A stretch of 64,000 nucleotides of DNA, taken from Paralvinella palmiformis (lineage: Eukaryota; Annelida; Polychaeta; Terebellida; Alvinellidae). Position 1 is the first letter of the stretch, and every line of letters begins with the position of its first letter. This document shows positions 18,843 to 56,680 of this stretch, piece after piece. The notes under the pieces were generated by a model. It saw only the letters and a program-made list of their open reading frames with translations, ran no database searches and had not been told where the DNA came from. The position numbers and the translations under genes are program-made. Where the stretch lies: contig JAODUP010000185.1 of assembly GCA_025642065.1 (NCBI GenBank), positions 444,501 through 508,500 of the forward strand, written 5' to 3'.

Positions 18843-21800
18843 TCACTTCTTCTTGCTCTTTATCAGCGAATCAAGGTTTTCATCGAAGCTTGATTCGTTA
18901 ACGTTTAGCATCAAGCTACCGGCATTCAAGTAGACTCTGTTTTTAGATGCAGCAATCTGGAAAAAAGATACAATAACATCAATGCAATATCCTCTTGAAA
19001 TATGATCAAAACTCAACCTATACAAGGCTGGAGTGATGTGCAGAGTCTTGTGACTCACAGAGTCAATTTTGCTGTTTTACATAACACACAGAGCTATATT
19101 TTCATGCATGTTACCAAAACGATCAATATAAATGTGGGTTCCTGTCAAAAATATTTCTGTTATGATAAATGCCTGGATATCACACCAATTTGTATAGTAT
19201 CAATTAAGTATAAGCCCTTTCATGGTCTCTTTCTATTAATGCTGTCTATAGTCTTGTTCCTATATCCTTCTTTCCCCAGCATCTTGTTATAAAACACTTC
19301 AACTCTATTCTAAGATGCATCAGAGCCATGTGGTTTTTATGCTCACGGATATCAATCAGATGATACCAAAGAATATTATAACCAAAACAAAACCTACATA
19401 CAATGTGAATATAAACATGAACTAAATGTCTCAAACTGGGAAAGGCTTTTCTGCCACAAAACCATACATTCATCAATAAGCAGCCTTTTCAGTAGGGAAT
19501 AGAGTAGACGACTGTTTACAAAAAGTAGGCAGCAGCTCACCTGTGGTGGCCTGTAAAAACACCATGATGCCATTGCCACATTGATGGAGGAATGAATGCA
19601 GGGAGGGAGGGAAGGTGTGAAGGGCTGACCATGGGGTAGTGGTAGTAATAACACTTAAACAGTAGTGGCACTTTTCCATTGGAAGGGAGGGTAAGGGGCT
19701 CCTCCCTGAAAAGTTGGGGAAAATGGAGTATTTGGTGCATTCTAGGCTGCTTTTTCGCCAAAACCAAAGTAGCTGACCGATTTTCTGCCGATAAAATAGG
19801 TGACAAGGGACTGTATAATAGATGGCATATAGCGTCATGTCAGCTGCTATTGAAAAGGCTGAATGTTTTATTTACACATTATATAGGATGAACATATGCC
19901 TCCTTAAAAAAGTGGCATTAACATCAGCAGTAGAATAACAATATCATCACCTTTGATACAATTCTAAATATGTAAATTATCAATTAGATAAAAGAAAAAA
20001 ATAAACCAGGCTCAGAGAAATAAAATGGTATACTACACTATACAGAACATACTATTTTAACAAAATCAATCACAGAATACTAACAGTTCTTGCAATGTTC
20101 TGGGCAGCTCTGATCTTTCTCAGCTTCAGGTATCCAGGGTTTGATGCGATGGATTCACCAATCTGTCAAAATAACAAACACACAGCATCAGCCTTACGTT
20201 CGTTGAAACATACCGTTCTTATCATTGTTATTGGCTAACAAAGACAAGTTGAGCTTATCATCAGATTACTAAAGGAATGATCACATCTCGGGAAGTTTGC
20301 TCAAGGCGGCGTACTGGGTCACCGCAGAAGTGACCCGAGTCTCCTGTATAGCTGGACAATGTAACTTGTGACTGAGGCTCGAATCACAAGTCCGCACAGT
20401 TCAGCTTTGGTCCTCTATGGTTGCCCTTACAGGATGTATGCTGACTGTGACATACACCCCAAGATTACAGCCAATACTAAATAACTCTGGTTACACAAGA
20501 TCTTAACGACAGTGCTTTTTAAACCAAGATCAGATGCGCCTTTGTTTCATCACGTGATAAACTCAACATACGATTTGGGTTATAAACTTAGAGACACATT
20601 TAGCCGACAATATTTAAACAAAGAACAACACTGCAAACGATATTACACATCCCATGTAAATTCTGGGGCAACTATTAAAACAACCCAAAACCCTTCGGAC
20701 AATACTTACCATTTTAGCTGCTGCAGCCTCTCCTTCAGCTTGTACAATCTTCTGTTGTCTTTCTTGTTTTGCCTTTTCTACAATAAACTGGGCTCTCTGT
20801 GTTTCTTGTTGTGCCACCTATAATACAATAAACAACGCTGTCATGGTACATCACACAATATCACCTAAATTAAAACAATACATTGGCTAATATTCGATGC
20901 AATAAAAGCATGCACAAGGCTGATGAACCAGCCAGTCTAACCAACAAAAAGATTCCCTGATACAACAACAGACCTGTTTGGATTCAACAGCGGCCGTGTA
21001 CTCTCTCCCGAAAGCTAACTCTGTTATGGCCACATCATCCAGAATTATGTTGAAGTCACGAGCACGCTCAATCAGCTCCCTGCGTACCAACAGGGACACC
21101 TGAGAACGCTGTGTGATCAGCTGGGAGGCATTAAACTTGGCTACAACGCTCTTTAGCACCTGTACGAACATACCAAAACAAAAAAGAATTTAGGCGAGTG
21201 AGCATAGTGTTTAGTTCATCATTGGTCACAAACCTGGGACTTACAGCCGAGAGGCTACTTATTAGATAAACGTGAACGTGCAAAAAGACTTAAAACAGAT
21301 AAAATGTCAAGCTAGTTTTTTTATAAAAAAACACACCCAACTCCTTGCACAGTGCAATGATGTGTTGGTCAGAACCACACAATAGATTATACTATTTAGA
21401 ACATCTGTATTTTATGTTTATTAAGGACACACACAGACGTGTATCCCTTACAAGAAATACCACACAAAAACAGTTCATATAGCATTCCACTCAAGGTCAA
21501 GCACCACAATAAAGGCACATGACCGAAATTTGAATGCATACCAATTTCCTTACGAGAACAATTTAAACAGAAAAACTACCAGAAAACACTTTGTAGTAAT
21601 AACTTAAAAAATTTATGTTTAACCTCAGCACTGACCACAACTGGGACATATCGCCACGAGGCAATTAAATGAGGAACTATCCAACAAACACAGGTATAGG
21701 ATGAATCCTAACCCACAACCTGGAGGCTTGCAAAACAATGTTTTAGATAATATAACATCATGCAAAATTAATTGTATTATTTTAACTACACAATTCACTA

Positions 21801-38100: not shown

Positions 38101-39245
38101 GTGTCATCTATATAACCATGTACTGTGTTATCAGTCGGCTTAGAATCATATGATCTGAATATAAGTGATAATTAAATTGATAAAAATCTATCTTGCAAGA
38201 TGTCCACCCTAATGTAATTTTGACTCGAGGCATTTATAATAACCACATTAAATGTAATAATTATATCCATCAATCTTATTATTTTTTAACCAATTGTCAG
38301 CATCATCCCATACTTACGGAATAGTTTATTGGACCTCCCTCATAAAACTTGAATCCTAGAAGCAACTCTTGAGATGCACAGAAAATAGATCACTCATCAG
38401 TTGCAAACATGTGGCATGATAAATTCTGTAATCTGTAATGTGATGGAACTGTTTTACCAAATGTGGTGACTAATAATGATAATAATGTGTGATTTATATA
38501 GCACCACATTCAATTGGGTTGTTCTGGGGTGTTTTACATATATTATTATCCCGACTCAGATCTGCTTCAATCCAGAACCTGCTGTAACTCCCATAGAAGC
38601 ATACAACACATGCTGCCATTAAGGGTTCATTGATCACTTTTATTTTGACAACCTGTAATAAATATTAAATTTTTCACATATTTCTTATAATAATTTGAGG
38701 ATAACCTTTTTTCGAGAGCTCTTGATGGATAATACTTTTCTTCAGTTTGAACATCTATTGTTGACAATTAGATAAAACCATAATTTTATATGAGGTCATG
38801 AGCACTAATGTCTAAAGCCTGCTAACATCATTTCTTGCCGAATATAAATATGTGTCATTATGATTCTGTGGATTTACCATCTTTTTATTTATATCTGTCA
38901 TTTTGTTGATAGGTTGAAGAAAGCATGGAGAATATTTTAGACATAGTTGCAGAACGTAACAGGGCATACAACTTGTTAGAAAAGGGTGATCCAGGTCAGC
39001 CAAAGCGCAGATGGTTTATTAATGAACTAGGTCTGGGATACTGGCGATGGGAGACTGAGCATTATATTCCAAAGCACATGAACCGTGCATTAAGGAATTC
39101 CACAAGCCTGCAGGGACGTTGGCAGAATTATTACCTTCGTCTCTGGCGAGAGAAGATGATACGTAAGAATCGAAAAGAAGCCAAAGCAAACCTGTGTAAA
39201 GAACGGAAATTAAAAGAAGTATTTCCTGATGCTGAGACAGATTAG
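32103..39245 (+). CDS. MRPL47: Mitochondrial ribosomal protein L47 (uL29m), five coding exons
   Basis: MRPL47 is the mitochondrial uL29 protein, near the polypeptide exit tunnel of the large mitoribosomal subunit. Exons: 32103-32191, 35105-35208, 36434-36494, 36847-36943, 38913-39245. All junctions are GT-AG and phases close, giving 227 residues. Exon 1 is too short to stand out; it was chosen because its donor phase fits exon 2 exactly and it encodes an arginine-rich, mostly non-acidic presequence ([18 protein letters not shown]). Residues 50-94 hold the family signature: [38 protein letters not shown]. The C-terminal part has [16 protein letters not shown] and a lysine/arginine-rich helix, as in MRP-L47 proteins. 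Exon 1 is the least certain part. Intron 1 carries a fold-back repeat copy, a SINE fragment and a pogo-like relic. Confidence 0.93.
32690..33480 (+). mobile_element. Second copy of the fold-back repeat (right arm only)
   Basis: From about 32695 it follows the spacer and right arm of the PHB2 intron 1 element: GAACATCGGAATTGTGTTCG, CATCTGAACCATGCATCATC, ATTATAATCAGATTAAAAAG, CACCTGGGAACCCAG, then TATCAAAAGCATCTTCTACT and GGCGCATGCACATTGA. The left arm is absent. It lies in MRPL47 intron 1. Confidence 0.85.
33697..33810 (+). mobile_element. SINE-B fragment in MRPL47 intron 1
   Basis: Begins at CTCGGCATGGACATATCTGA and includes CCCATTTAGCCTACCATATG and an ATCATCAATCAATCATC tail. The tRNA-like head and a short internal piece are missing. 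Confidence 0.8.
34036..34882 (+). mobile_element. pogo/Tigger-like transposon relic in MRPL47 intron 1
   Basis: The ends contain degraded copies of the GTATAAGTC / AGTATATA inverted termini seen in the better-kept relative at 39.7 kb. Inside, near 34590-34760, broken plus-strand frames resemble the C-terminal end of pogo-type transposases: a [29 protein letters not shown] stretch with an acidic tail. Several stops and deletions mark it as dead. Confidence 0.65.
35550..36000 (+). mobile_element. CAGGGTTCCC-type repeat in MRPL47 intron 2
   Basis: Starts CAGGGTTCCCATGCATCCTGG, contains TTTTACAAAATCAGAA and ATTATGCATGTAGAAGAAAA, and ends near TTTCCTTGGCTGTGGGAAC. The same landmarks recur in the 42.2-42.96 kb repeat. 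The CAGGG terminus suggests a hAT-like non-autonomous element; an internal deletion is likely. Confidence 0.6.
36095..36336 (-). repeat. AAATACTT-rich terminal fragment of a hAT-like element
   Basis: Read on the minus strand it starts CAGGGTTAAATACATTTGTA and is filled with AAATACTT/AAGTATTT words, a pattern typical of hAT-type subterminal repeats. Only one end is visible. Confidence 0.45.
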
Positions 39246-44083: not shown

Positions 44084-45031
44084 CTAGTACGAGTGCCTCT
44101 CGTTAAAACGATGAGGGCGTTCTGCCGATTTGGGGTGAGATCTTTTTGGAAAACTGCCAAAAGCGCTCATGTGTCCGATGCTGTCGAATGATCTTTTCCC
44201 GAAGCCGCCGAAGAAACTCCTATGTTCAATCGAGTCGAAGCTTCGCTTGCCCAAGCCCCCAAAATCGCTTGCGCCAGCAATGGAATCGAACGACCGTTTC
44301 TTATAATGCTGAAATCCATTTAGTCTTGGAGTAGAATTGATTCTGCGCTTCTTGAATCCTCCAAAGCCACTGGCGCCTGATATAGAGTCGAATGCTCGTT
44401 TCTTAAATCCTCCAATTTCACTAGGGCCAGATATTGAATCTAATGCTCGCCTTCTTGATCGTCTGTATTCTCTGGTACCCAATTCGCGGTCTAGTGTGCG
44501 GCCCGTATTTTCCCCAAAGCCTGATATGGAACCAAATTCTCGTCTATTAAATTCATCAAATCCATTCGGCTCTGAAGCTAAATCAACAAGTCGCTTCTTA
44601 AATCCTCCAAAACCGCTGGCACCTGCTATTGAATCAAACGCTCGCTTCTTGGTTTCTGTTAAGTCGGTGGCACCCGATAAATAATCACGCCCTTTCTTGT
44701 TAAATCCTGGAAATCTAGTGAAACCATCTAACTTCATGTCTTCTATGAATTTCAGCAGATCCGAGTGCGATCGAACCTTACTATTCAGACGAGGCGATAT
44801 CCGCTTGGTAAGACTCCAAACTCCACTTCGACCATTTTCGTTATTCACCGCCAAAAGGCGGAGTGAATCAGACACCTCTTTTTCTGGCTCGTTTTCGATT
44901 TGCAGCAACTCAGCTCGGTCAGCTATCATCGAAGGCGACACGGCGTCTTGGTTCTTAGAATGATATGTCCTGAATAGCATAATGTCGTTAATAAGATCGT
45001 TGTCTACAGAGATTGGTGATGGCTCATAGTC
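44084..45031 (-). CDS. Orcokinin/pedal-peptide-like neuropeptide precursor, last coding exon
   Basis: Encodes the C-terminal 315 residues of a secreted prohormone. The exon starts at 45031 after a good acceptor (TTATCATTCCAG) in phase 0; the open frame continues to an ATG at 45082, but that part reads as intron. The first 130 residues are an acidic spacer with some KR sites. From exon residue 131 a 14-residue peptide plus a basic cleavage site repeats with a 17-residue period: AFDSIAGASGFGGF-KKR, AFDSISGASGFGGF-KKR, ALDSISGPSEIGGF-KKR, SFDSIAGASDFGGL-GKR, SFDSIEHRSFFGGF-GKR, SFDSIGHMSAFGSF-PKR. The FDSI..SGFGGF pattern matches the orcokinin/pedal peptide superfamily. Two copies have Gly before KR and should be amidated; most others lack it. 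Prohormone convertases would cleave at KR/KKR in neurosecretory granules. The signal peptide must lie in an upstream exon that I could not identify. Confidence 0.9.
   Translation of the reverse strand, partial: DYEPSPISVDNDLINDIMLFRTYHSKNQDAVSPSMIADRAELLQIENEPEKEVSDSLRLLAVNNENGRSGVWSLTKRISPRLNSKVRSHSDLLKFIEDMKLDGFTRFPGFNKKGRDYLSGATDLTETKKRAFDSIAGASGFGGFKKRLVDLASEPNGFDEFNRREFGSISGFGENTGRTLDRELGTREYRRSRRRALDSISGPSEIGGFKKRAFDSISGASGFGGFKKRRINSTPRLNGFQHYKKRSFDSIAGASDFGGLGKRSFDSIEHRSFFGGFGKRSFDSIGHMSAFGSFPKRSHPKSAERPHRFNERHSY
44141..44641 (-). repeat. 51-bp coding tandem repeat array (peptide cassettes)
   Basis: Exon residues 131-297 consist of ten units, nearly all exactly 17 codons. Six are good FDSI or LDSI cassettes. 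Four are degraded but keep the period: LVDLASEPNGFDEF-NRR, EFGSISGFGENTGR (14 codons), TLDRELGTREYRRS-RRR, RINSTPRLNGFQHY-KKR. The retained spacing and open frame suggest selection on processing, or recent decay without frameshift. Confidence 0.88.
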
Positions 45032-45280
45032 CTGGAATGATAAAGGGATATCAAATATGTGGATGAAACATATATTGTACACGTATTGTAAAAGTGTACA
45101 CGTATTTTAATAAAGCTTATTTAAACTTTCGTTGATATGGCATTACTCCGCGGTCATCTCTAGTGGTTTCCTGACATTAAATATTCGTGGAGAGAGGCGT
45201 TATAATAGTTTTTCGTCTGGTTATGGGTCGTAGACTTTCTGGGAATACGTGCTGATAGGATGAAACATCTGACAAATATA

Positions 45281-45358
45281 GATAACGGTGGGATTTGATC
45301 CCACGACCTGGGGATCTGCAGCGCATTGTGCTACCAGCTGTTGTACCGGATAACTCCC
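45281..45358 (-). repeat. tRNA-like SINE head or tRNA pseudogene
   Basis: Read on the minus strand it has a D-arm-like AGCTGGTAGCACAATG and a perfect T-arm, GTGGGATCAAATCCCAC. The acceptor ends do not pair, so it is not called a working tRNA gene. Confidence 0.45.
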
Positions 45359-45470
45359 AACTCGTCATCTCACGCTGGATTAGAAAATTACGGCTTCCTA
45401 CCGATGTGGTTGATTGATCGATTGAGAGAGAGAGAGTAGATCAGTGATTGAGTAGATGGTTTGTATAAAA

Positions 45471-45487
45471 AATAAATAAATAAATAA

Positions 45488-45526
<39 letters not shown>
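45471..45526. repeat. (AAAT)n(AT)n microsatellite
   Basis: About five AAAT units lead into about 17 AT units, on the 3' side of the minus-strand LINE fragment at 45.6 kb; it could be that element's degraded tail. Confidence 0.9.
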
Positions 45527-45530
<4 letters not shown>

Positions 45531-45599
45531 ACCCTTACTGACATAAGCCATTCAAATGCAATGATTACAATACCCTAAATAATATTTCTGTAAAACTAA

Positions 45600-46100
45600 A
45601 TTATGTATTTGAATGATAACCATTACTTATCTGTGAAAGCAATCCTGAACAGGTGTCTTTTCAGAATAAATCTAAACTTTTCAAGAGATGACGTATTTCT
45701 AATATTCACCGACAACCTATTCTACAAAGTGAGCTGCAACACTAAACATACACACGTATTTATGTGCCATGTCATGGGTAGATTTATAAGTTGTTAGTAA
45801 AATCTTGACATAGATATGCTGTCTAATAGGTAGCCAATGTAGTTTATGAAAAATTGATGTTATATGATCATATTTTCGAGCATTATTCTGAATTCGCTGC
45901 TGCTATTGTCAGATATGCCATATAATTGGGAGTTACAATAGCCTATACTAGATTTAACATCCATCCACCAGAGTAACAAGTGCTTGTATCAAGAATGGTA
46001 CTAAATAGTGGATGTTCTTAAAGGCCTCGGACCAGTGAGTTTTATATTGTAGAAGTAGCTTGCTTGTGTCAAAAGTATACACACTGTTACTCGACTCTTC
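45600..46100 (-). mobile_element. CR1/L2-type LINE fragment, heavily decayed
   Basis: In shifted minus-strand frames one can read FLIQALV...YCNSQLYGISDN, then LHWLPIRQHIYVKILLTTYK and MAHKYVC, followed by a KRHLFRI-like end. These are the same landmarks as in the LINE fragments at 41.1 and 46.7 kb. Multiple stops and frameshifts are present. Confidence 0.7.
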
Positions 46101-46265
46101 CAAAAATAGTCCCATTGAAACACAACCTGTTTTTGATAATGCCTCAGCACCTACAAGGAAGTATGCGCTTCTGTCATCTTGAGTTTTGTTTGTCAAATCA
46201 ATCTATGGCTCCAATATTTGGACCAACACGTGACTGAGTAAACCCCGTGTGCCTCTATTTTCTAA

Positions 46266-46553
46266 ATAACTGGTCTCAATGGAGCAGATACAGTGTCACT
46301 TGTTTTAGGAGGTGCGCGTGTTATGTTGACGTTTGCCGGGTATATGGTAGGGACGGCGTCTTTCTTCCATATCGCTTTCTTTGTCATATTGCCTTTTGTT
46401 GTGATAGTTGTTACCAAAACAATGATAACCGCATATGTATGATATGCAATGGCGGCGCTTACTGCCTGGTTATGTTTGGCCGTTGTGACGTCACAAGCTT
46501 TATCTATAGACATGTCACCGTTAAGAAGAATAATCGCAGGTATTATTGTTTAA
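46266..46553 (+). pseudogene. Hydrophobic reading frame with one internal TGA
   Basis: In one plus-strand frame, 96 codons are interrupted by a single TGA at 46440-46442. The product is strongly hydrophobic (ARVMLTFAGYMVGTASFFHI and FFVILPFVVIVVTKTM before the stop, AALTAWLCLAVVTSQALSI after it), like two or three membrane spans of a transporter or receptor. CAG then GTATTA near 46538 could be a splice donor. I do not recognise the family. The minus strand is also open over 46262-46513, so this could be chance or a decayed element. Confidence 0.25.
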
Positions 46554-46713
46554 CAATATACAATACTAAAGTTAGAAGGGAATGAAAACAATATTGAAAA
46601 TTCAAATGTCCGAGTCCTTTAAGATGGTAATAGGCATATTGGTATGGCATGTTCATACATATTAATACATTTGTCAAAAACAACAAACCCTTTTTGCTGA
46701 CTTAACACAATGA

Positions 46714-46719
<6 letters not shown>

Positions 46720-46750
<31 letters not shown>

Positions 46751-47880
46751 GTTGATAAACGTCTATGGCGCCAATATCCTCGAACGGGATCGAGCTAGGT
46801 GGCGCACTTAATACACGAGTGCTAAGCAAGTCTGAAAATATGAGTTTTCAGATAGTGACGGAAATAAACCATTCTATTTGATGACTTAACATGTTCAGGA
46901 AGTGAATTCCAAAGAGTTGGGACAGCACCTGAAAAAGCACAAGTATCAGCATGTGTTTTAACACTGGGAACAGATAACAAGTGAAAACCAGATGAACGGA
47001 GCCCTCTGAGCTTGGGTCCTAGAGAAACCATGGAAAATAGATACAGATGTTCACCAGAAGAAAGAGTTTTATAGGCAATAGTACAGAGTTTGAAAATGAT
47101 GCGAGATTTAATAGGCAGTCAACGAAGTGATTTCAGGAGTGACACAGGATGAGAACACTGATATCGTGTGAAGACCCTAGCAAAGCAGTTGTCAACACAC
47201 CGAACCTTCCAACATCCTTAGATGCGATGGTATAAAGAAGAGAGTTACAGTAATCAAGCTTACCAGTAATGAGTGCTGTAGTAATGGTTTTGCCGACTGA
47301 AAGAGAAATATAGCGACGTAAACAGAGAAAATCAAGAATATTGTAGAAGCAGCAGCGACATGTCAGAGAAATATGTTTTCTGAAATTAAAATCACTATCA
47401 AATATAACACCAATATTATACGTACAGTGTCTGGTGGTGTGATGCTATGATTAAAGATGGGCGTAGGGAAGAAACGAATAGGTTTACTGCGTTGTCTGGA
47501 TGCACCTATGATAATGAAATCCGTTTTGCATTGAATGGATGAATGGATGAATGTTGTTTAACGACACATCGGCACAATTTAGGCCATTCAGTCTCTTGTT
47601 TTGCATTGAACCTAAGTCTATTGTTTGTCATCCAGCCAGAGATATCACGGAGATAGTCACATAGCTGTGTAAGAGAAAGATCTGTGGCTGCTATAGATAA
47701 AGATACTTGGATGTCATCTGTATATAAATGTTTGTCTAATTTGTGGCTGTGAATAATATAGCTTAGTAGTGTAGTATACAGAGATATTAACAGTGGTCCA
47801 AAAACAGAGTCTTGGAAACAGAGTCTTGGAGAACTGCCTCTGAAAAAGAGATCCAAGTGAGTGTTGTGCCCGATGTGCCA
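46720..47880 (-). mobile_element. CR1/L2-type LINE, 5'-truncated, with ATT-repeat tail
   Basis: Minus-strand pieces run in order: FGPLLISLYTTLLSYIIHSH with LDKHLYTDDIQVSLSI (polymerase motif; the usual YADD is HLYTDD here), DISGWMTNNRLRFN, LDYCNSLLYTIASKD, the HLYLFSMVSLGPKL segment, VPTLWNSLPEHVKSS and YFRHYLKTHIFRLA. The 3' tail is a TTA/ATT run (plus strand TAA units, 46720-46747). Frameshifts and a stretched 5' end show it is inactive. It shares its 3' part with the plus-strand copy at 16.6 kb. Confidence 0.88.
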
Positions 47881-49698
47881 AACTTATACTGATGTCAACT
47901 AATCAAGGTAAGCCAGTATTATTTGTTCTTCTTAATCAAATATGTAATATTTGCTTTATTATCATTTACATTTGAGTCACCCATAGCCGGATATCTGCAA
48001 TACAATGTTCAAAATTCTTCATGGAAGAGGACAGATTTAACTCCTAGTCAGGATCCAGCGTTATGTAATGCTATGTATTACAACCATACAAGTGGTATTT
48101 AACGCCATATCGCTGAGCAGTGATGCATAGAGGACGTGTATACATTGTGAAAACTAGAGGACTAAGAACTGAACATCAGATAAAATACCATGTGCAGACT
48201 GTCGTGATTCATTAAGTTTATTATTATTGAATACATATTTGTTTAGGGGGAAAGCAACTACCCTTGCTACGGGTTTTAGATATTAAAAATGTTGCATTTG
48301 AAGCAGGTCTGTATATCTTTAGAATATTACCGACCAAACTGGCGTTTCTTGTTAATGGTTTTACAACGGGAGCCTTCATGGATATTGGGAAAACACCCAG
48401 ATTTACTGATTTATTAAGTTATCAGAGCACTCAGACACTCTTTCAGAAGCCACGTAGGCACAGGTCCAACTGCCCAGAAAACATTATATGACCTTTTCAG
48501 CAACTATATAGCTGACATAACTCTCTGTAATAAGCTCGAATGTATTCATTATGGACACACTTTTATGAACGGGTGTGATAAGGTGCTGGAAGGGAACCCA
48601 TTAGGTATATTTAATATCTTTTGACAGAAGATGTTTATTAAAACAATGGCATTTTAATATAATTCATTTCAGCTCTTATTTTGTACCTTTATTTAAATTG
48701 AAAAAAGTATTTATATTTAATGTATTGTCTGGTTGTGTGATTAGTAAGTATCCTACGGACCAAAATAAGACATTTTCCCTCACCATCCAAATGAACCAGA
48801 ACGCACGAAGAAATCCGAATAGAAAAGTTAGTGGATATGTAAACTTGCTTCAGTGCTAGTCGTGTCAGGTTGTAAAGGAATGACTTGATAAGATGTCTCG
48901 TTCATTTCTACTCGATGAAGAAATTCCGCTTCAACTCATATAATGACGCTTGTTACAATAGAGGGGATGTTTCATTACATAGCTCCTGGTCTTAATCACG
49001 TTCGGATATTCACGTTCTACCACGTCCGGCGTCCCATTACGCCCCACCTGGTCTTATCTGCGTGGACGTCCCATGCTGCAAAACAGGCTATGGCCCACTC
49101 TATCCCATATCATATCCCATAGCCTTATCATGTGATGACAACCCATGTTACAATACAGAAAGTGTCCCATTATATGTCACGTGATATTATATAATAACAT
49201 AATACGGGCGAAGTCTTCCGGTCTTTCACCGACATATCCGTCTTCCGGACTATCGTCCATGGACAATAGACAAAGCCATGGAACAAAAAAAACAAGAACA
49301 ACAAACAAACAACTGACGTGTTAAGAGTTTAACCTGCGACTTGGTTTATTGCGGCAAATCGAAGGCAGGACGTGGTAGTCTCTCACACGAACTCATTGTC
49401 TGCGATCACATCTTCATGCTGTGATCCCATTCTATGAGAGCAGGATGTCGTGTATGAAGACGACGATCATATGTCTCTCTCGACGACTGTATATCATATC
49501 ACACTGAGCCGGTTATTCGGGTGGGAGGCGATCAAGAGTGAGTTGATGTCTTAAATAAATTCCGTATGGCGTTCCCCCATGTTACGCCGGTCGGCTCACC
49601 TAAGTCCGGGTGAAGAAACTAAGATGGTGGTGAGTTGCTGAACCACCCTCTCGTTGTCGTAATCTGGGGGTAGGGGGGGTAGGGTGACCGCAGGCTGT
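47881..49698. other. Intergenic, no recognised gene
   Basis: A 75-codon frame at 48264-48491 shows no family features. No clear repeat was seen; from about 48900 the sequence becomes less AT-rich. Confidence 0.5.
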
Positions 49699-49730
49699 TA
49701 TAAAGACAGACTGCTGAGAACGATCAGTTT
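49699..49730 (+). promoter_or_regulatory. TATA box plus initiator candidate
   Basis: TATAAAG at 49699-49705 and TCAGTT at 49724-49729 place the initiator A (49726) 27 bp after the TATA start, the classic metazoan spacing. The first ATG downstream is at 49772 and opens only 28 codons (stop 49856-49858). No gene is recognised downstream, so this may drive a short first exon, a non-coding RNA or nothing. Confidence 0.35.
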
Positions 49731-49894
49731 CAGCTGAGGACAAATTCACGATTTTATTGAGCAAAACGAAGATGGATTGCGAGCGATTATCGCATTTTAG
49801 GGGCAGTGGAAAGCGAATTACGGGAGAAGAATTTCCGCGCCCAACTCCATGTGATTAATATATTCATACTGTGTACGTGCGTACGTGCGCGCAT

Positions 49895-50050
49895 ATGTGT
49901 GTGTGTGTGTGTGTGTGCGTGTGTGTGTGTGTGGAAGGAAGAGCTATGTTTAAAAATCGACTATCTGAACTAATATCAAAGAAGTCCCTATCAGACATAT
50001 TTTACACACGCACACACACACACACGCACACACACACACACACGTGCGCA
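49895..50050. repeat. (GT)n and (AC)n arms facing each other
   Basis: A GT/GC run (to about 49933) is mirrored after about 70 bp by an AC/GC run (about 50003-50050). Outer parts also match: GTGCGCGCATATGTG against CACGTGCGCACATGC. Together they form an imperfect inverted repeat with arms of roughly 45 bp. Confidence 0.85.
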
Positions 50051-52128
50051 CATGCCATGCTGCCAATACCAACTTTGTATACCCTTTTTTGTAATTTTAT
50101 GGCCTAGCCATCATAATGAACTTTATCATTAATAAATGTAAAGTAGATTGAATTGGCGAAATATTTAAAGTGTTCATAGTTCAGACAAAAATAAGCCATA
50201 CGCTATAGCAAGCCATAAAATGTTTGATATCAGAGCTTCCAACTTCGAGAAATAATGCACAACGAATTGTGACAAGATCTTATGGCATTAAAAAAATGGC
50301 ATGGGCTTGAGAAGAATCTATGCAGTAAAGCTTTTACTTTGGTGGACAATGGCCAAGACGGTTATTGTGACGGATGCCTAGAAATAGTTGACCATCACGT
50401 TTATGGCATAATAGATTTACCACATCTTCTCATTTCCGACGTCCCATCAGTAAATTACTCGATGGACGTTTCTGTGGAGAATATAGCCATAAACATAATT
50501 ATATTGGTAACACTGACTGATGCAGTCGCAGTTGTCTTCCTTAATCTTTGTATTTCGCCGAACATGTACCTGATCGGATTTACGACTGCGTGATTCGAAA
50601 TGTAATCAAATCTACCGAAACAAAAATAGCTACTTCCGCGCGTAGCTCTGGCCTTCCAGCGACGTTTGAGTGAAGTAATTCGTGATGAATTAAGTGATTC
50701 TAGTGCAATAGACGTAACCGCTTCTCGTGTCGATATCCACTTTCCTTGTTCTTGTCTATTTATCAGTTAGGCTGGCAACGGTGCTCAGTAATCAGTAACA
50801 TTTGTTGTTGTGCATTATAATTTCTTCGTTGAAAGGGGGCAAGAACAATTCGTGTATTCGAGCATTAAGAACACTGGCGTTACTTTACAATATAAATAAC
50901 GTCCCTTGATCCGGGCTAGTTATGCCATAAAAACGCCGTCATTTCGCCCAGCAAATCTCTCTGCAACAAACCGAAATGGCTTTATTTCATGCTGGTTTTA
51001 GAAGCAATTAAGTCGTGTTTGCCGAAGTCGTTTAAACAGTGCAGGCTGTTAACGTGCCAAAGCCGTAAATATGCCATTTTCGACGGGTGGGGGGAGACTG
51101 TTGAGAGTCCCAAATCGACGGATGCTTACGTTATGTGCCTCCGGAGTCGTTTGACCGGGAGCTGCTTATCGGAGGCATTCCCTCGTGTCGCCCAAAAGGT
51201 CAACGCAGACGTCTCCATCGGCGTTGATTCTGAACGATTACGAATCTCGGCTGGAGTCAGATGTTCGCCGCACGTCTGGGCCATAAAGGACGTGAATATA
51301 TATAATGTAATACGCCGGGAAGGATTCTGCGCAGTCTGGATTTCGCCCGTGTTTCGTTTGCATTGGTCGGTTTCACATTCAGGATCTCTTCCTATCTCTA
51401 CTCTCGTGTCTGTCAATTAACCGGCAAACCACGAATCTGAAGGTGGCGGTCGAAGCTAGCGCCACAATCGTCTCAGAAAGTGCTCCTCAAAGACGCTGTT
51501 ATAGGGAAAAATTGTCATAGCCAAATAATCTGTGACCGGCGCATCGCTGGGAGTAAACGCCGGGAAAAGTCGAGGCGTGACAAAACGAATATAAGCCAAA
51601 TAAGCAATTCTCGCTCGATAGGATGCGGCTCCTGCTACAATTAGTTGCACGTTTTCTGGACTATCCGCGTCCTGCGTGTCTTAAGACAAAGGTCAATATC
51701 TAATAACAAAAAAACCTTCGCAAACAAGGAAGTAGCCGCCATCTTTGATTCAGCATTTAGCCACAATGTTTCCCGTCGTAACATATCTGTGAATAAGTAG
51801 ATATTCATAAAAAAATCGTCATTTCTTTTCCTATTTGTGCCTATTTCGGTACAGAAGTCTGTCAATGAAGAGCGAACGAAACGAAACTAAAGGGAATTAT
51901 TTGTGACACTGCGACAGCCATTGGTTGACGTAACGATAAATAAGTAAGGGGGCGGGGTACTGTTGTTGACTGGATACGGAAAAGGGAAGAAAGGGCGAGG
52001 GGTCAATCTTATTACACAGCCCGACGAGGATATTAATTCGAAAAAGGAAAAAAGAGGGGGGAAACATATGAACTTTTTATTTCTGTCATTAGCAACTCAT
52101 TTTATTAACAAACAATATTAACCCATCT
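50051..52128. other. Less AT-rich intergenic stretch, no recognised gene
   Basis: Frames of 103 codons (50282-50593) and 143 codons (50989-51420) exist but show no family motif, and the second is open on both strands, as expected in stop-poor sequence. Few repeats are visible, so conserved non-coding sequence is possible. Confidence 0.45.
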
Positions 52129-52446
52129 GTCGAGCCGTGATAGCGCAGTTAGTTGAGTGTAGGACTCGTAGCCGAACGGTCGCGGGTTCGAGGCTCCGTG
52201 AGCTGCAATGCTGTGATGTGGCGACTGGTTCATTCATCCATAAAATGAGTACCTGACTGAACGCAATGGCTATGTGTTTGAGTGACGTTTTGCGCCTAAA
52301 CTGGCAGCATGCGTTGTATGCTCCCTTGGGAGTTGAGATAGGTGCTGGGTGGAAACAGGTCTGAGTCGGGGATAATAATATTGTAAAGCGCCTTAGAGCA
52401 GTTTCTATCTGAATAGGGCGCTATGTAAATGTCACATATTATTATG
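52129..52446 (+). mobile_element. SINE-A, full-length reference copy
   Basis: tRNA-like head with A-box TAGCGCAGTTAGTTGAGTG and B-box GGTCGCGGGTTCGAGGC; body with GAGCTGCAATGCTGTGATG, GTACCTGACTGAACGCAATG and GGGAGTTGAGATAGGTGCTG; tail TAGGGCGCTATGTAAATGTC with ATT units. The GGCGCTAT.TAAATG tail resembles the 3' end of L2-type LINEs, which would supply the replication machinery. About 318 bp. Confidence 0.9.
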
Positions 52447-54909
52447 TATTATATCTGATCCAGAGAAGGCCCATCAATATCTAGTCAATAGAACAACACA
52501 ATTCCTGTAAAATCGGCTGTGCCTAGTTAATATAGTTTATAATCCTAATTTTTTCCTATCTCCCTTTCATACAGAAATGGTAAAGCGGTAAAAAATGAAC
52601 CTACAATTACTGTACATTTAGCGGGATGTTATTCATGCTAAATTGCTAAAAACAACCACATCGAAGTAGAGTTCGATCAAAGAATTTCTTTTACAACGGA
52701 GAACACCTTGGGCTTCAGGTCGGCTGAAGCTTTCCTACGGCAACATGCCATCCCGTAACTCTGCGTGGAACGCGACACACTAACAGATGCGCCTTCTTAA
52801 TACGATATTCATGAACGCCTCTCTTTCAGCTGACGGCCGTAATGAAGCAATACGTCTTCCGCGTCTGCGAGCCTCGGCTAGGGAACAATTCCGGCGCTAA
52901 ACTGTCCCCTATACCACCTGTCTTGGCTACCTGGTCGCCGTTACAATGTGACTGAATGGTGCGGATTTAAAAAGCGAAGTCACCGCAACTGAAACCTTTA
53001 ATATACAACATCTCGGCCCGTTCTATTTATGCCTGGGAGCTTCAAAGCCGAAAGACCTAGAAGTTGTTCGGGTTCCGTTTTCCATTCGCTCTCAGAAGAG
53101 ACGCGCACCGGGATCGATGGTTTTTGTTTCGCTCTGGATCATTTAGGCTACTGTTGAAATTAGTCGCAACTGTATCTACGTATCCGAATACGGAATACGT
53201 ATTTGTGAAGAACATTCAAATCAAAGTTCAAAACGATTCCGTTTCGCTTAAATCACTTTGTACCACGATGCCATCTATCCAAGTGAAATTCCACAATCGC
53301 TTCTAATATAAAAAAAGGTGTAAATAAGTTACCGAGTCAGTCGCAGTGTTTCAATGGGTGAGGGGTGTATGTGATGTGTTTGACTGGGCACATATGGGAC
53401 GAATAGCCCAGGAATGATTCCCCTAAAGGGAAACTCCCACAAAGACAGGTACGTTTCGTATTTGAATCATGACCTGGCGTGTCACAACTTAGACTCATGT
53501 ACATCAGATGTATTACTAATTACCAGATAGGTAGACTTCTATCCACTGATCACTTTTGTTAACAAGGGTGTGTATGATGTCAGTTATCGGCCTAATTCCG
53601 GTATCCAATGACTTATAATCAAGCAGTATCGTATTCGCTTCGATCCTCCGCAGAAATCAAACATGACCCCATTTCATGGCCCAACCGCCAGCATTCGTGA
53701 AACCGGAAACTACGTGAACAGATGCCGAAGGAATTAAGTTACGATATAATGCTTAATTACACGCATATTCATTACAAGTAGCCATGCTAATAATTAGGAT
53801 GCGGCGTATTATATAAGCGTTTCCACGATAATATAAATATATTATTCACACCGCCTATGTTTACCTTACCTGTCATACAAGCACTCACCCGGTTGGTAAA
53901 GGTGAGTCGAAAACGACAACTAACGCAAATATTTAGTTTCGATCAATATGAGAGTATGTAGAGTTATCTGATTAAAATTACACGAAACTTTATTTGGCGT
54001 AGTTACGACTGAGGGATAACCTTTAGGACCACTATAATCTCCTAATCATGTTAAGTAGTGGAAGGTTTTAATTAGTTTCTCATCATGCTTACCTATTTTC
54101 ATGATGCACGATAATTAAATTATAATAGTAGATGTAAACATGACAATATTCTGTTTAGCCGGCCACAGCTCTAAAATACTACGCCCTCTGGAGTCTGTGT
54201 AGAGTAATACAATTCGTAATTAAAACGCTTGTGATTGTGGAAAAAAAACGAATGCATATCCGATATGCTTGATCGCATCCAATAAACAGTTCCAAGGAAG
54301 TTTTTGGATTTCTGTTTATTTACGTTATTTCGTTTTTGTTTTGGTGCGGAATTTCATACGTTTTCCTGCTGATAAGGGCACCGTATATTTAATATGCATT
54401 AATTTATTATTGGTACTTCACCATAAGTTTAGATGAATACTTGTATTTGTCTGAATGTTTTAACTCAATACGTGGACAAATACTTGATAAACCTGAAAGT
54501 AACTGATCCGTGTGTTTGATCCATTTCAATCGCAGATGGAATTGCCATGAAATGGGAATACAGTTTTAGAAAGACCATTTAAATTAAACTCCTCGAAAAA
54601 AAGCGGGGATGTTGGGCACCGGACGAGATAAAATTGCTTTTATCGAAAATGAACGTCACAATGGCCACCACAAAACAACATAAAAATTGTATATAATAGA
54701 ATCGATAACAGGACAAACCGGAACAGTACAATATGAGACGGTAGTTTTACCGCTTATAGATGTTTTGCGGGCGTAGGCTGTTGAGGAGATTGTCTGGCTA
54801 AAACCTGAAGGCTGGAATCGCCATTTACCCTCATGTGATTTTTTTTGTCATCCAGCTGTACGTGTTTGTATATAAAAAGTAAAGTTCTTGAAACATCATT
54901 GCCGGAATA
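52447..54909. other. Intergenic, repeat-poor, no recognised gene
   Basis: Only an 80-codon frame (53064-53306) without family features, and a SINE-like scrap near 53340-53480 with a B-box-like TATTTGAATCATGACC. About 52.7-53.1 kb is less AT-rich and looks single-copy. Confidence 0.45.
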
Positions 54910-55135
54910 CATTTATCGCTAAGGGAAGTGGGGCTCTTTTGCAGACCCTCAGATGGTTGGATCAGTCTGTGGGACGTTTCATCTGATAGAGCGCAGTTCT
55001 CATAGAGTCGCCTTTCTGTCTTATGTTCCAGAAGTAATCAGCTCCGCAACACTCACTCGCTCACTCATTTACTCACTCGCTCAACCAACAATTCCCTCAC
55101 TCACCCATCCATTCACTCACCCACATACCTCTACC
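54910..55135 (+). repeat. SINE-like repeat R4 with ACTC-type tail
   Basis: A tRNA-like but diverged start near 54910-55030 is followed by CACTCACTCGCTCACTCAT and related CACTC/CATTCACTC units. Layout as at 11.5 kb. Confidence 0.4.
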
Positions 55136-56680
55136 GGAAATAGCTATCTTTCTACCGCATTAATACCACACACTTTCGGTCACCACGAAAATCCTTACAA
55201 GAATCAAGCGAGCAAAACTATTGTAACGCGTTTGTCGACAAATATTTCACACAAAAAGACCGTTAGGTCGAAAGGACCATCGATTAGTAATACGATATCG
55301 AAAAGGAGCAAACTATATTTACACCAGAATGTCAATACACGCTACCTCTAAATATATGCCTTTCGATCTTAAATGGGATTACCATTTTAACATCATACGT
55401 GAACGCCGAAGAAACGGTTCTCGTATCATATAGTCCGTTCAATGAGTTTGGCAAGACACCAACTATGTATCGAATAGACACATCTTCTACACCATCATGA
55501 AATATGACCGAAATGAGGCGGAAGTAATGTCTAATACGACGTAAAGAGCACTTCGCAACAATGACGACTTAGATAACGGCTTTGATTAAATCCGAAAAAG
55601 ACATCTTACCTGTCGTGGTAAGTTGTTGCTATTGGCCAGAGAACAGCTCAGGGGCCACAGGAAGAGATATACGAATACAGCCAGCATGGTGTAATAAGAG
55701 TGTAGTCGCCGGATCTCTGATAAACGTTTCCGTTCCTGGACTATTCCCCTCTTCTAGTAAACCCGAGCAGTCCGCTTCTAGGTGCTTCCTTGGCAGATTT
55801 ACGCTAATCCCACGTATCTCTAAACTGTTTAATTTTTCCTGTTCTCCTCGGATAATAGCTCCCCTTTTGACTGGTTTAATATCTGGAATAACAATATGTC
55901 GACTTAACACAACTGATCTGGCTGAGGCAACTCGTTCCAAACTAAATGTGTTTTATTAATATTTTGTCAGAATAAAAACAACTTTTGGCGCCATCAAATC
56001 ATTGCAGCCTTCAGCCAAACGGCATAATTATTAAACAATTTCAGTAAACAAAAAATTTCTATCATCCCACACGAATGAAAACAATATACCTTGCCATTTC
56101 CAACTTGATGGACATCTGCGCGGTTTCTATCCTACAGCCAGTTATCGTCTGCTACTAGCAATGATGGCGCGCGCGTTAGGCGTCCTTTTCTACCGGCGTC
56201 GTCGTCTGCTGGTGGGCGCGGCCTGTGGGGGACGTTATCGTCTGCTCGGATCTATTCGTCATCGTACGTATTTCTTAGCCCTTGCTCGGGTCGGATGCAG
56301 GTCCTGTCCGCTGCCCGATCGAGCAATTAACGAACAGTTATGACCACTTTGTTAACACGGTCCGGATAACGTCAACAGTCCCGTCAATAGATAATAATTC
56401 AGCTTGAGTGTCTGGCAATTGTTCGCCATTGACACTCGGCGTTGGCGAGAGGACGGACGGGCAAAGGGCCGTGGGAGGGAAAACGTGAGGAAGGTCAAGC
56501 GTAATGTAGGGTCGGTTGTTTTAGTGGAAATACGCCAAGACAACGGTGCTTGTTATGGCATCACTCTAATCTCTGTACTTAGCAAACATTGATCAGATAG
56601 CTGCACAAGTGTTTGACCCGGATATTGAGAACTGATATTATGATTAATACTGATAAAATAAGTGTGATGAAATGTAACCG
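55136..56680. other. Intergenic, no recognised gene
   Basis: A 103-codon minus frame (55629-55940) and a 125-codon plus frame (55582-55959) overlap each other; neither has recognisable motifs. Around 56160-56500 the sequence is GC-richer and promoter-like in composition only. Confidence 0.4.

What the first reader, a model, noticed from the sequence alone, without database searches (positions are those of the whole stretch)
44084..45031. Neuropeptide precursor mixing intact, amidated and decaying orcokinin/pedal-peptide cassettes
Ten units sit in one exon on an almost strict 17-codon period. Six encode recognisable FDSI- or LDSI-type peptides; four keep the spacing and basic sites but have lost the core. 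Only SFDSIAGASDFGGL and SFDSIEHRSFFGGF are followed by Gly-Lys-Arg and should be C-terminally amidated, while the related copies end KKR without Gly. Classical pedal peptides and orcokinins are generally not amidated, so one gene may make two chemically different peptide sets.
Basis: partly seen in the sequence, partly recalled or inferred. Interest (0 to 1): 0.75.

Follow-up and report, generated by a model that had tools for sequence, protein, structure and literature searches.

The report
Orcokinin/pedal-type neuropeptide precursor gene
This is an invertebrate nerve-peptide gene of the pedal peptide/orcokinin kind whose repeated peptides carry two different chemical ends and include worn-out copies; it is a genuine new member, but the mixture of ends already has published and database precedents.

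Summary
The minus-strand exon 44084-45031 encodes ten 17-codon cassettes. Six carry an intact FDSI/LDSI core, four are eroded, and exactly two of the six end in Gly-Lys-Arg. I add a likely signal-peptide exon at 55610-55687 (phase-0 intron of about 10.6 kb), giving a 341-residue pre-propeptide. The eroded units match the intact ones in register at DNA level, so they are probably diverged copies. Pairwise pN/pS is 0.30 among intact units and 0.89 among eroded ones; synonymous sites are saturated and the grouping is partly circular. The same genome has a paralog with the same exon layout: seven QLD-LG...VPLY-GR units (LYamide type) and 23 free-acid FDSI units. Homologs include a land-snail protein with 10 of 12 cassettes amidatable and another predicted precursor mixing both ends. 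Published precedents exist: a cuttlefish orcokinin-B-like precursor mixes amidated and free peptides, and a sea-slug pedal-peptide-4 homolog yields amidated FDSI peptides. So the two-chemistry idea is plausible but not new in kind. Verdict: a new member of the pedal peptide/orcokinin family. Species, transcription and peptide products are unproven here.

The parts
55610..55687 (-). Predicted exon 1: MLAVFVYLFLWPLSCSLANSNNLPRQ, signal peptide (cleavage probably after SLA, by eye) followed by donor CAG|GTAAGA, phase 0
   Evidence: Script scan of 18,969 upstream bases: better of 2 candidates. In 126,084 control bases 4 candidates passed and none scored as high; 2 of 100 Markov randomisations did. 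Predicted, no transcript.
45032..55609 (-). Predicted phase-0 intron of about 10.6 kb
   Evidence: Donor CAG|GTAAGA and acceptor TTCCAG|GAC. The paralog has the same layout with an intron of about 11 kb.
44084..45031 (-). Exon 2: acidic N-terminal spacer and peptide cassettes, 315 codons plus stop
   Evidence: homologs.
44642..44692 (-). Eroded unit GRDYLSGATDLTETKKR
   Evidence: In-register DNA match to intact units, p=0.0088
44591..44641 (-). Intact unit AFDSIAGASGFGGF-KKR (free acid predicted)
44540..44590 (-). Eroded unit LVDLASEPNGFDEFNRR
   Evidence: p=0.0006
44489..44539 (-). Eroded unit EFGSISGFGENTGRTLD
   Evidence: p=0.0044
44447..44488 (-). Out-of-period 14-codon stretch RELGTREYRRSRRR; the ENA sequence P0001 differs here by one residue (R to G, exon residue 191)
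44396..44446 (-). Intact unit ALDSISGPSEIGGF-KKR (free acid predicted)
44345..44395 (-). Intact unit AFDSISGASGFGGF-KKR (free acid predicted)
44294..44344 (-). Eroded unit RINSTPRLNGFQHYKKR
   Evidence: p=0.0010
44243..44293 (-). Intact unit SFDSIAGASDFGGL-GKR (C-terminal amide predicted)
   Evidence: codon GGC at position 15
44192..44242 (-). Intact unit SFDSIEHRSFFGGF-GKR (C-terminal amide predicted)
   Evidence: codon GGG at position 15
44141..44191 (-). Intact unit SFDSIGHMSAFGSFP-KR (free acid predicted, ends in Pro)
44084..44140 (-). C-terminal tail and stop codon; AATAAA 138 bases beyond the stop, at window 43945

Best explanation
This is the gene for a secreted pedal peptide/orcokinin (FDSI-type) neuropeptide precursor of what is most likely a lophotrochozoan animal. 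A signal peptide encoded by a separate first exon sends the protein into the secretory pathway. Prohormone convertases cut at the dibasic sites and carboxypeptidase trims the basic residues. Where the trimmed peptide ends in Gly (two of six), peptidylglycine alpha-amidating monooxygenase converts it to an amide; the other four stay free acids. The peptides most likely act through receptors as neuromodulators of muscle or cilia. Shown here: the frame, the cassettes, the GKR/KKR/PKR sites, the homologs, the paralog, and a Cu2-monooxygenase domain in the genome. Inferred: exon 1, splicing, cleavage, amidation and function. The four eroded units are diverged former cassettes that are now spacer or orphan peptides.
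For: Cassettes, period and dibasic sites. Six homologs at E 7.9e-34 to 7.7e-5 besides the near-identical P0001. Paralog in the same genome with the same 17-residue cassette, 58% identity over the best stretch. Matching phase-0 exon layout and signal-peptide exons predicted in both genes. A query made of published pedal peptides finds this locus first in the genome, E 3.6e-13. Intact units are alike at protein level while silent sites are saturated. Eroded units are in register at DNA level. Cu2_monoox_C matches over the cut-off on two contigs.
Against: There is no transcript: P0001 begins in what I read as intron, so it looks like a genomic ORF call. No Pfam model matches the exon. Exon 1 is a script prediction, not SignalP, and 2 of 100 randomised sequences scored as high. 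Synonymous sites are saturated, so pN/pS is rough; the intact/eroded split was made on protein sequence, which biases the comparison. The database gave no informatively named relative of this gene. Cu2_monoox_C also occurs in other monooxygenases (recalled).
Confidence: 0.87

Rival explanations
1. An allatostatin-A/buccalin precursor: the FGGL-amide end would be the active part and the gene would be the buccalin orthologue.
For: P0003, a homolog of this gene, also finds P0011 (named buccalin-like, Mytilus edulis) and the similar, unnamed P0010, which share LD...GGL/GSL-GKR cassettes.
Against: Only one of six intact units would be an L-amide. The cassette is 17 residues, against 14 in P0010. 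The genome has a separate L/I-amide precursor on C844 with 16 [YF]xG[LI]-GKR units.
Confidence: 0.05
2. A dying or dead paralog: the whole gene is decaying, the four eroded units being the first sign, while the 23-copy paralog carries the function.
For: Four of ten units eroded; fewer copies and higher pN/pS than the paralog (0.30 against 0.11).
Against: The frame is open over 340 codons. Cores and cleavage sites are kept in six units although silent sites are saturated. Splice sites and a likely signal-peptide exon are intact. P0001 shows one residue change in 315.
Confidence: 0.07
3. The GKR versus KKR difference is neutral drift at cassette position 15 with no functional meaning: a single receptor reads the FDSI part and ignores the end. 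(This concerns the meaning of the mixture and can hold together with the best explanation.)
For: Position 15 varies in the family: G, K, R, D, E, N, Q, M, P.
Against: Several precursors are nearly uniform at this site (P0012 17 of 18 amide; paralog 0 of 23), which may reflect selection or recent copy spreading. Not tested functionally.
Confidence: 0.4

Closest known systems
LYamide/FDSIG precursor (named in Platynereis, as cited in PMC4990251) and its apparent relative on C2441 of this genome
   Same: FDSI core; with the C2441 paralog also 17-residue cassettes, dibasic sites and the same phase-0 two-exon layout
   Different: The window gene has no LYamide units in exon 2; its amides are on FDSI peptides themselves, whereas all 23 FDSI cassettes counted in the paralog lack the Gly. 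The Platynereis sequence itself was not seen.
Molluscan pedal peptides (abalone PP-A, e.g. SFDSINAGSGLSGFA, PMC6523705)
   Same: FDSI core and similar peptide length
   Different: The listed abalone PP-A peptides carry no amide and end in GFA, GFM, GFV or DFA; here ends are GGF, GGL-amide, GGF-amide and GSFP
Sepia FLGamide/So-orcokinin B (PMC9410093)
   Same: One precursor with amidated (FLGa 3-5) and non-amidated relatives; FLGa 1, 2 and 3 detected by MS in that study
   Different: Core is DS(L/I)GGG with an FLG-amide end; not the FDSI...FGGF/L type
QNFLamide / pedal peptide 4 homolog of Pleurobranchaea (PMC8735849)
   Same: FDSI-type peptide with an amide, FDSISSGRLNGFNANFL-amide, in the paper's single-neuron MS table among previously characterized peptides
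   Different: Longer peptide with an NFL-amide end
Bradybaena similaris hypothetical protein (P0014)
   Same: FDSISG.SSFGGL/F-GKR cassettes, 10 amide and 2 acid by my pattern count
   Different: Nearly all amidatable; cassettes separated by extra basic spacers

Membership tests
Pedal peptide/orcokinin-type precursor | Several related peptides between dibasic sites | tested here: met
   Ten units, six intact
Pedal peptide/orcokinin-type precursor | [F/L]DSI-type core shared with known members | tested here: met
   Published abalone/Aplysia pedal peptides joined as a query find this locus best, E 3.6e-13; family hits
Pedal peptide/orcokinin-type precursor | Signal peptide | tested here: inconclusive
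   Strong candidate exon 55610-55687 with controls, but no transcript and no SignalP
Pedal peptide/orcokinin-type precursor | Free-acid C-terminus as in the prototypes (recalled as typical, not as strictly required) | tested here: inconclusive
   Four of six intact units acid, two Gly-extended; amidated members are published
Pedal peptide/orcokinin-type precursor | Neuronal expression, receptor | not testable with these tools
   No expression or receptor data
LYamide/FDSIG precursor | LYamide units together with FDSI units | tested here: not met
   None in exon 2 of the window gene; present in the paralog
Allatostatin-A/buccalin precursor | Cassettes ending in L-amide (or I-amide; PMC8514136, passages) | tested here: not met
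   One of six intact units; a separate L/I-amide precursor exists in the genome

The most novel reading that the evidence does not exclude
Cassette position 15 acts as an evolutionary switch in this family. By gaining Gly there, two copies of an FDSI peptide acquired an FGGL/F-amide end like that of buccalin/allatostatin-A peptides, so one precursor releases ligands for two receptor systems: acids for the pedal peptide/orcokinin receptor and amides for a second, possibly AST-A-type, receptor.
Probability: 0.1. Interest if true: 0.6.

Novelty: new member of a known kind. Interest (0 to 1): 0.3.

Why it matters
Pedal peptides and orcokinins are widespread regulators of movement. A gene whose tandem copies differ at one residue deciding amide or acid, together with an all-acid paralog and nearly all-amide relatives, is a natural system for asking whether the C-terminal amide changes receptor choice or only stability. 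It also shows intact and eroding copies side by side in one exon.

Tried and rejected
Pfam and PDB sequence searches of the exon gave nothing. Of the weak genome hits, the 17 loci L012-L028 were scanned for open frames with three or more FDSI-like cores or six or more dibasic sites; only L027, which is the window gene itself, passed. C1852 hits are a 51-bp satellite array. C2340 and C2141 hits to the buccalin-like query are other repeats. A literature search for six peptide strings, three of them cores of this gene's peptides, found no paper in the held library; six-letter core strings occurred in a neuropeptide context only in the abalone paper. This says nothing about subscription journals. 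The species could not be named: the COX1 search did not complete and I did not repeat it. No structure prediction was made, since such precursors are mostly disordered (recalled).

Full report
What is there. The minus strand of the window holds an open frame from 45106 down to 44084. After an acidic N-terminal region come ten 17-codon units; a 14-codon stretch at residues 182-195 is the one break in the period. Six units are intact: AFDSIAGASGFGGF-KKR, ALDSISGPSEIGGF-KKR, AFDSISGASGFGGF-KKR, SFDSIAGASDFGGL-GKR, SFDSIEHRSFFGGF-GKR and SFDSIGHMSAFGSFP-KR. Four are eroded. The period is far beyond chance: identity at lag 17 is 0.39, the shuffled mean is 0.09, and 0 of 20,000 shuffles reach it.

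The rest of the gene. A scan of the 18,969 bases upstream for a start codon, a hydrophobic signal sequence and a phase-0 donor gave two candidates. The better is 55610-55687, MLAVFVYLFLWPLSCSLANSNNLPRQ followed by GTAAGA; the other starts with a low-complexity Cys/Val run. In 126,084 bases of control sequence four candidates passed the filter and none scored as high; 2 of 100 Markov randomisations of the same stretch did. Joined, the exons encode 341 residues. This exon is a prediction.

The paralog. The window's assembly is 594 Mb in 2597 contigs. Besides the locus itself, the only FDSI-rich gene found is on C2441:355672-357543, minus strand; these searches score only the best candidates, so more distant members may exist. 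It carries seven QLD[S/T/D]LG...VPLY-GR units, then FDSI cassettes, 23 counted, none with the amidation Gly. Its exon also begins after a phase-0 CAG, and about 11 kb upstream lies a signal-peptide candidate, MTVQLLALILTVVCVVVVRADDQ with GTAAGT, the only one passing there; 0 of 100 randomisations scored as high. The mix of LY-amide and FDSI units matches the name of the Platynereis LYamide/FDSIG precursor cited in the Bugula paper (PMC4990251, section 15 read); I did not see the Platynereis sequence itself.

Relatives elsewhere. A search of 5.8 billion proteins gave seven hits. P0001 is the same gene with one residue changed in 315; its first 17 residues match the translation of the intron just upstream (the first, a GTG codon, read as Met), so it is genomic and no evidence of expression. 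Two further searches, with P0003 and with the paralog, added P0008-P0011 and P0012-P0015. Counting cassettes by one pattern, amide against acid: window 2/4, paralog 0/23, P0002 0/4, P0003 5/1, P0004 4/0, P0005 0/3, P0006 1/7, P0007 1/5, P0008 4/5, P0009 1/2, P0012 17/1, P0013 0/10, P0014 (Bradybaena similaris) 10/2, P0015 0/5. P0010 and P0011, buccalin-like, were left out of this count, and P0001 repeats the window. P0006-P0008 are a different SDLDE-type branch and their Gly calls may be chance; P0015 is an LDTLG/FDSLG type.

Erosion. With the basic site held fixed and the first 14 codons permuted 5000 times, each of the four eroded units still matches the intact units in register better than most permutations, p 0.0006 to 0.0088. 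They are therefore probably diverged copies and not unrelated filler. Pooled pN/pS is 0.30 between intact units, 0.68 between intact and eroded, 0.89 between eroded ones, and 0.11 among 21 units of the paralog. Silent differences are saturated (pS 0.69 to 0.95) and the two groups were chosen by protein likeness, so this supports relaxed constraint but does not prove it.

How it works. Cleavage, trimming and amidation follow from established prohormone biology (recalled). The genome has Cu2_monoox_C matches over the cut-off on C1054 and C2141, the domain of amidating enzymes, also present in related monooxygenases (recalled). The expected products are four acids and two amides. Function is inferred from the family: pedal peptides modulate foot muscle and raise ciliary beat frequency in molluscs (PMC5656890, passages), and LYa is among Platynereis peptides reported to alter larval ciliary beating (PMC7737342, passages).

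Is the mixture new? No. The Sepia FLGamide precursor carries peptides with and without the amide; that study detected FLGa 1 and 2 (no amide) and FLGa 3 (amide) by MS (PMC9410093, passages). A Pleurobranchaea pedal-peptide-4 homolog gives FDSISSGRLNGFNANFL-amide, listed as previously characterized in a single-neuron MS table (PMC8735849, passages). What remains particular is that neighbouring, closely similar FDSI copies differ in the switch residue.

Rival reading. The FGGL-amide end resembles buccalin/AST-A peptides, and the P0003 search pulled in a Mytilus buccalin-like protein. The genome has its own L/I-amide precursor with a different cassette (C844), so this gene is probably not the buccalin orthologue; cross-talk at the receptor is the boldest reading left.

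Noticed in passing
window 20256-20558 (-), beside 20887-21189 (-): Rfam snoU85-type scaRNA (42.6 bits, gathering 41) on the same strand as, and just downstream of, a prohibitin-like exon (Pfam Band_7), suggesting an intronic scaRNA; in vertebrates SCARNA12/U89 sits in PHB2 (recalled), so the host gene may be conserved.
   Followed up: partly
L009 (G000:C2441:355672-357543, -): Paralogous precursor with seven VPLY-GR units and 23 FDSI cassettes, more regular than the window gene and arguably the more striking of the two.
   Followed up: partly
window 46822-47883 (-): Open frames that look by eye like broken pieces of a non-LTR retrotransposon reverse transcriptase inside the predicted 10.6-kb intron; of the two pieces scanned, neither had a Pfam match above cut-off.
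   Followed up: no
L043 (G000:C844:17591-18304, -): Allatostatin-A-like precursor with 16 [YF]xG[LI]-GKR units, 13 of them YAGL.
   Followed up: partly
window 38913-39245 (+): 110-codon open frame with a basic, conserved-looking sequence ([22 protein letters not shown]...), perhaps a mitochondrial ribosomal protein exon (guess); no Pfam match above cut-off.
   Followed up: no
L037 (G000:C1852:140167-142045): 51-bp satellite array, about 37 copies at 96% match, open in several frames.
   Followed up: yes
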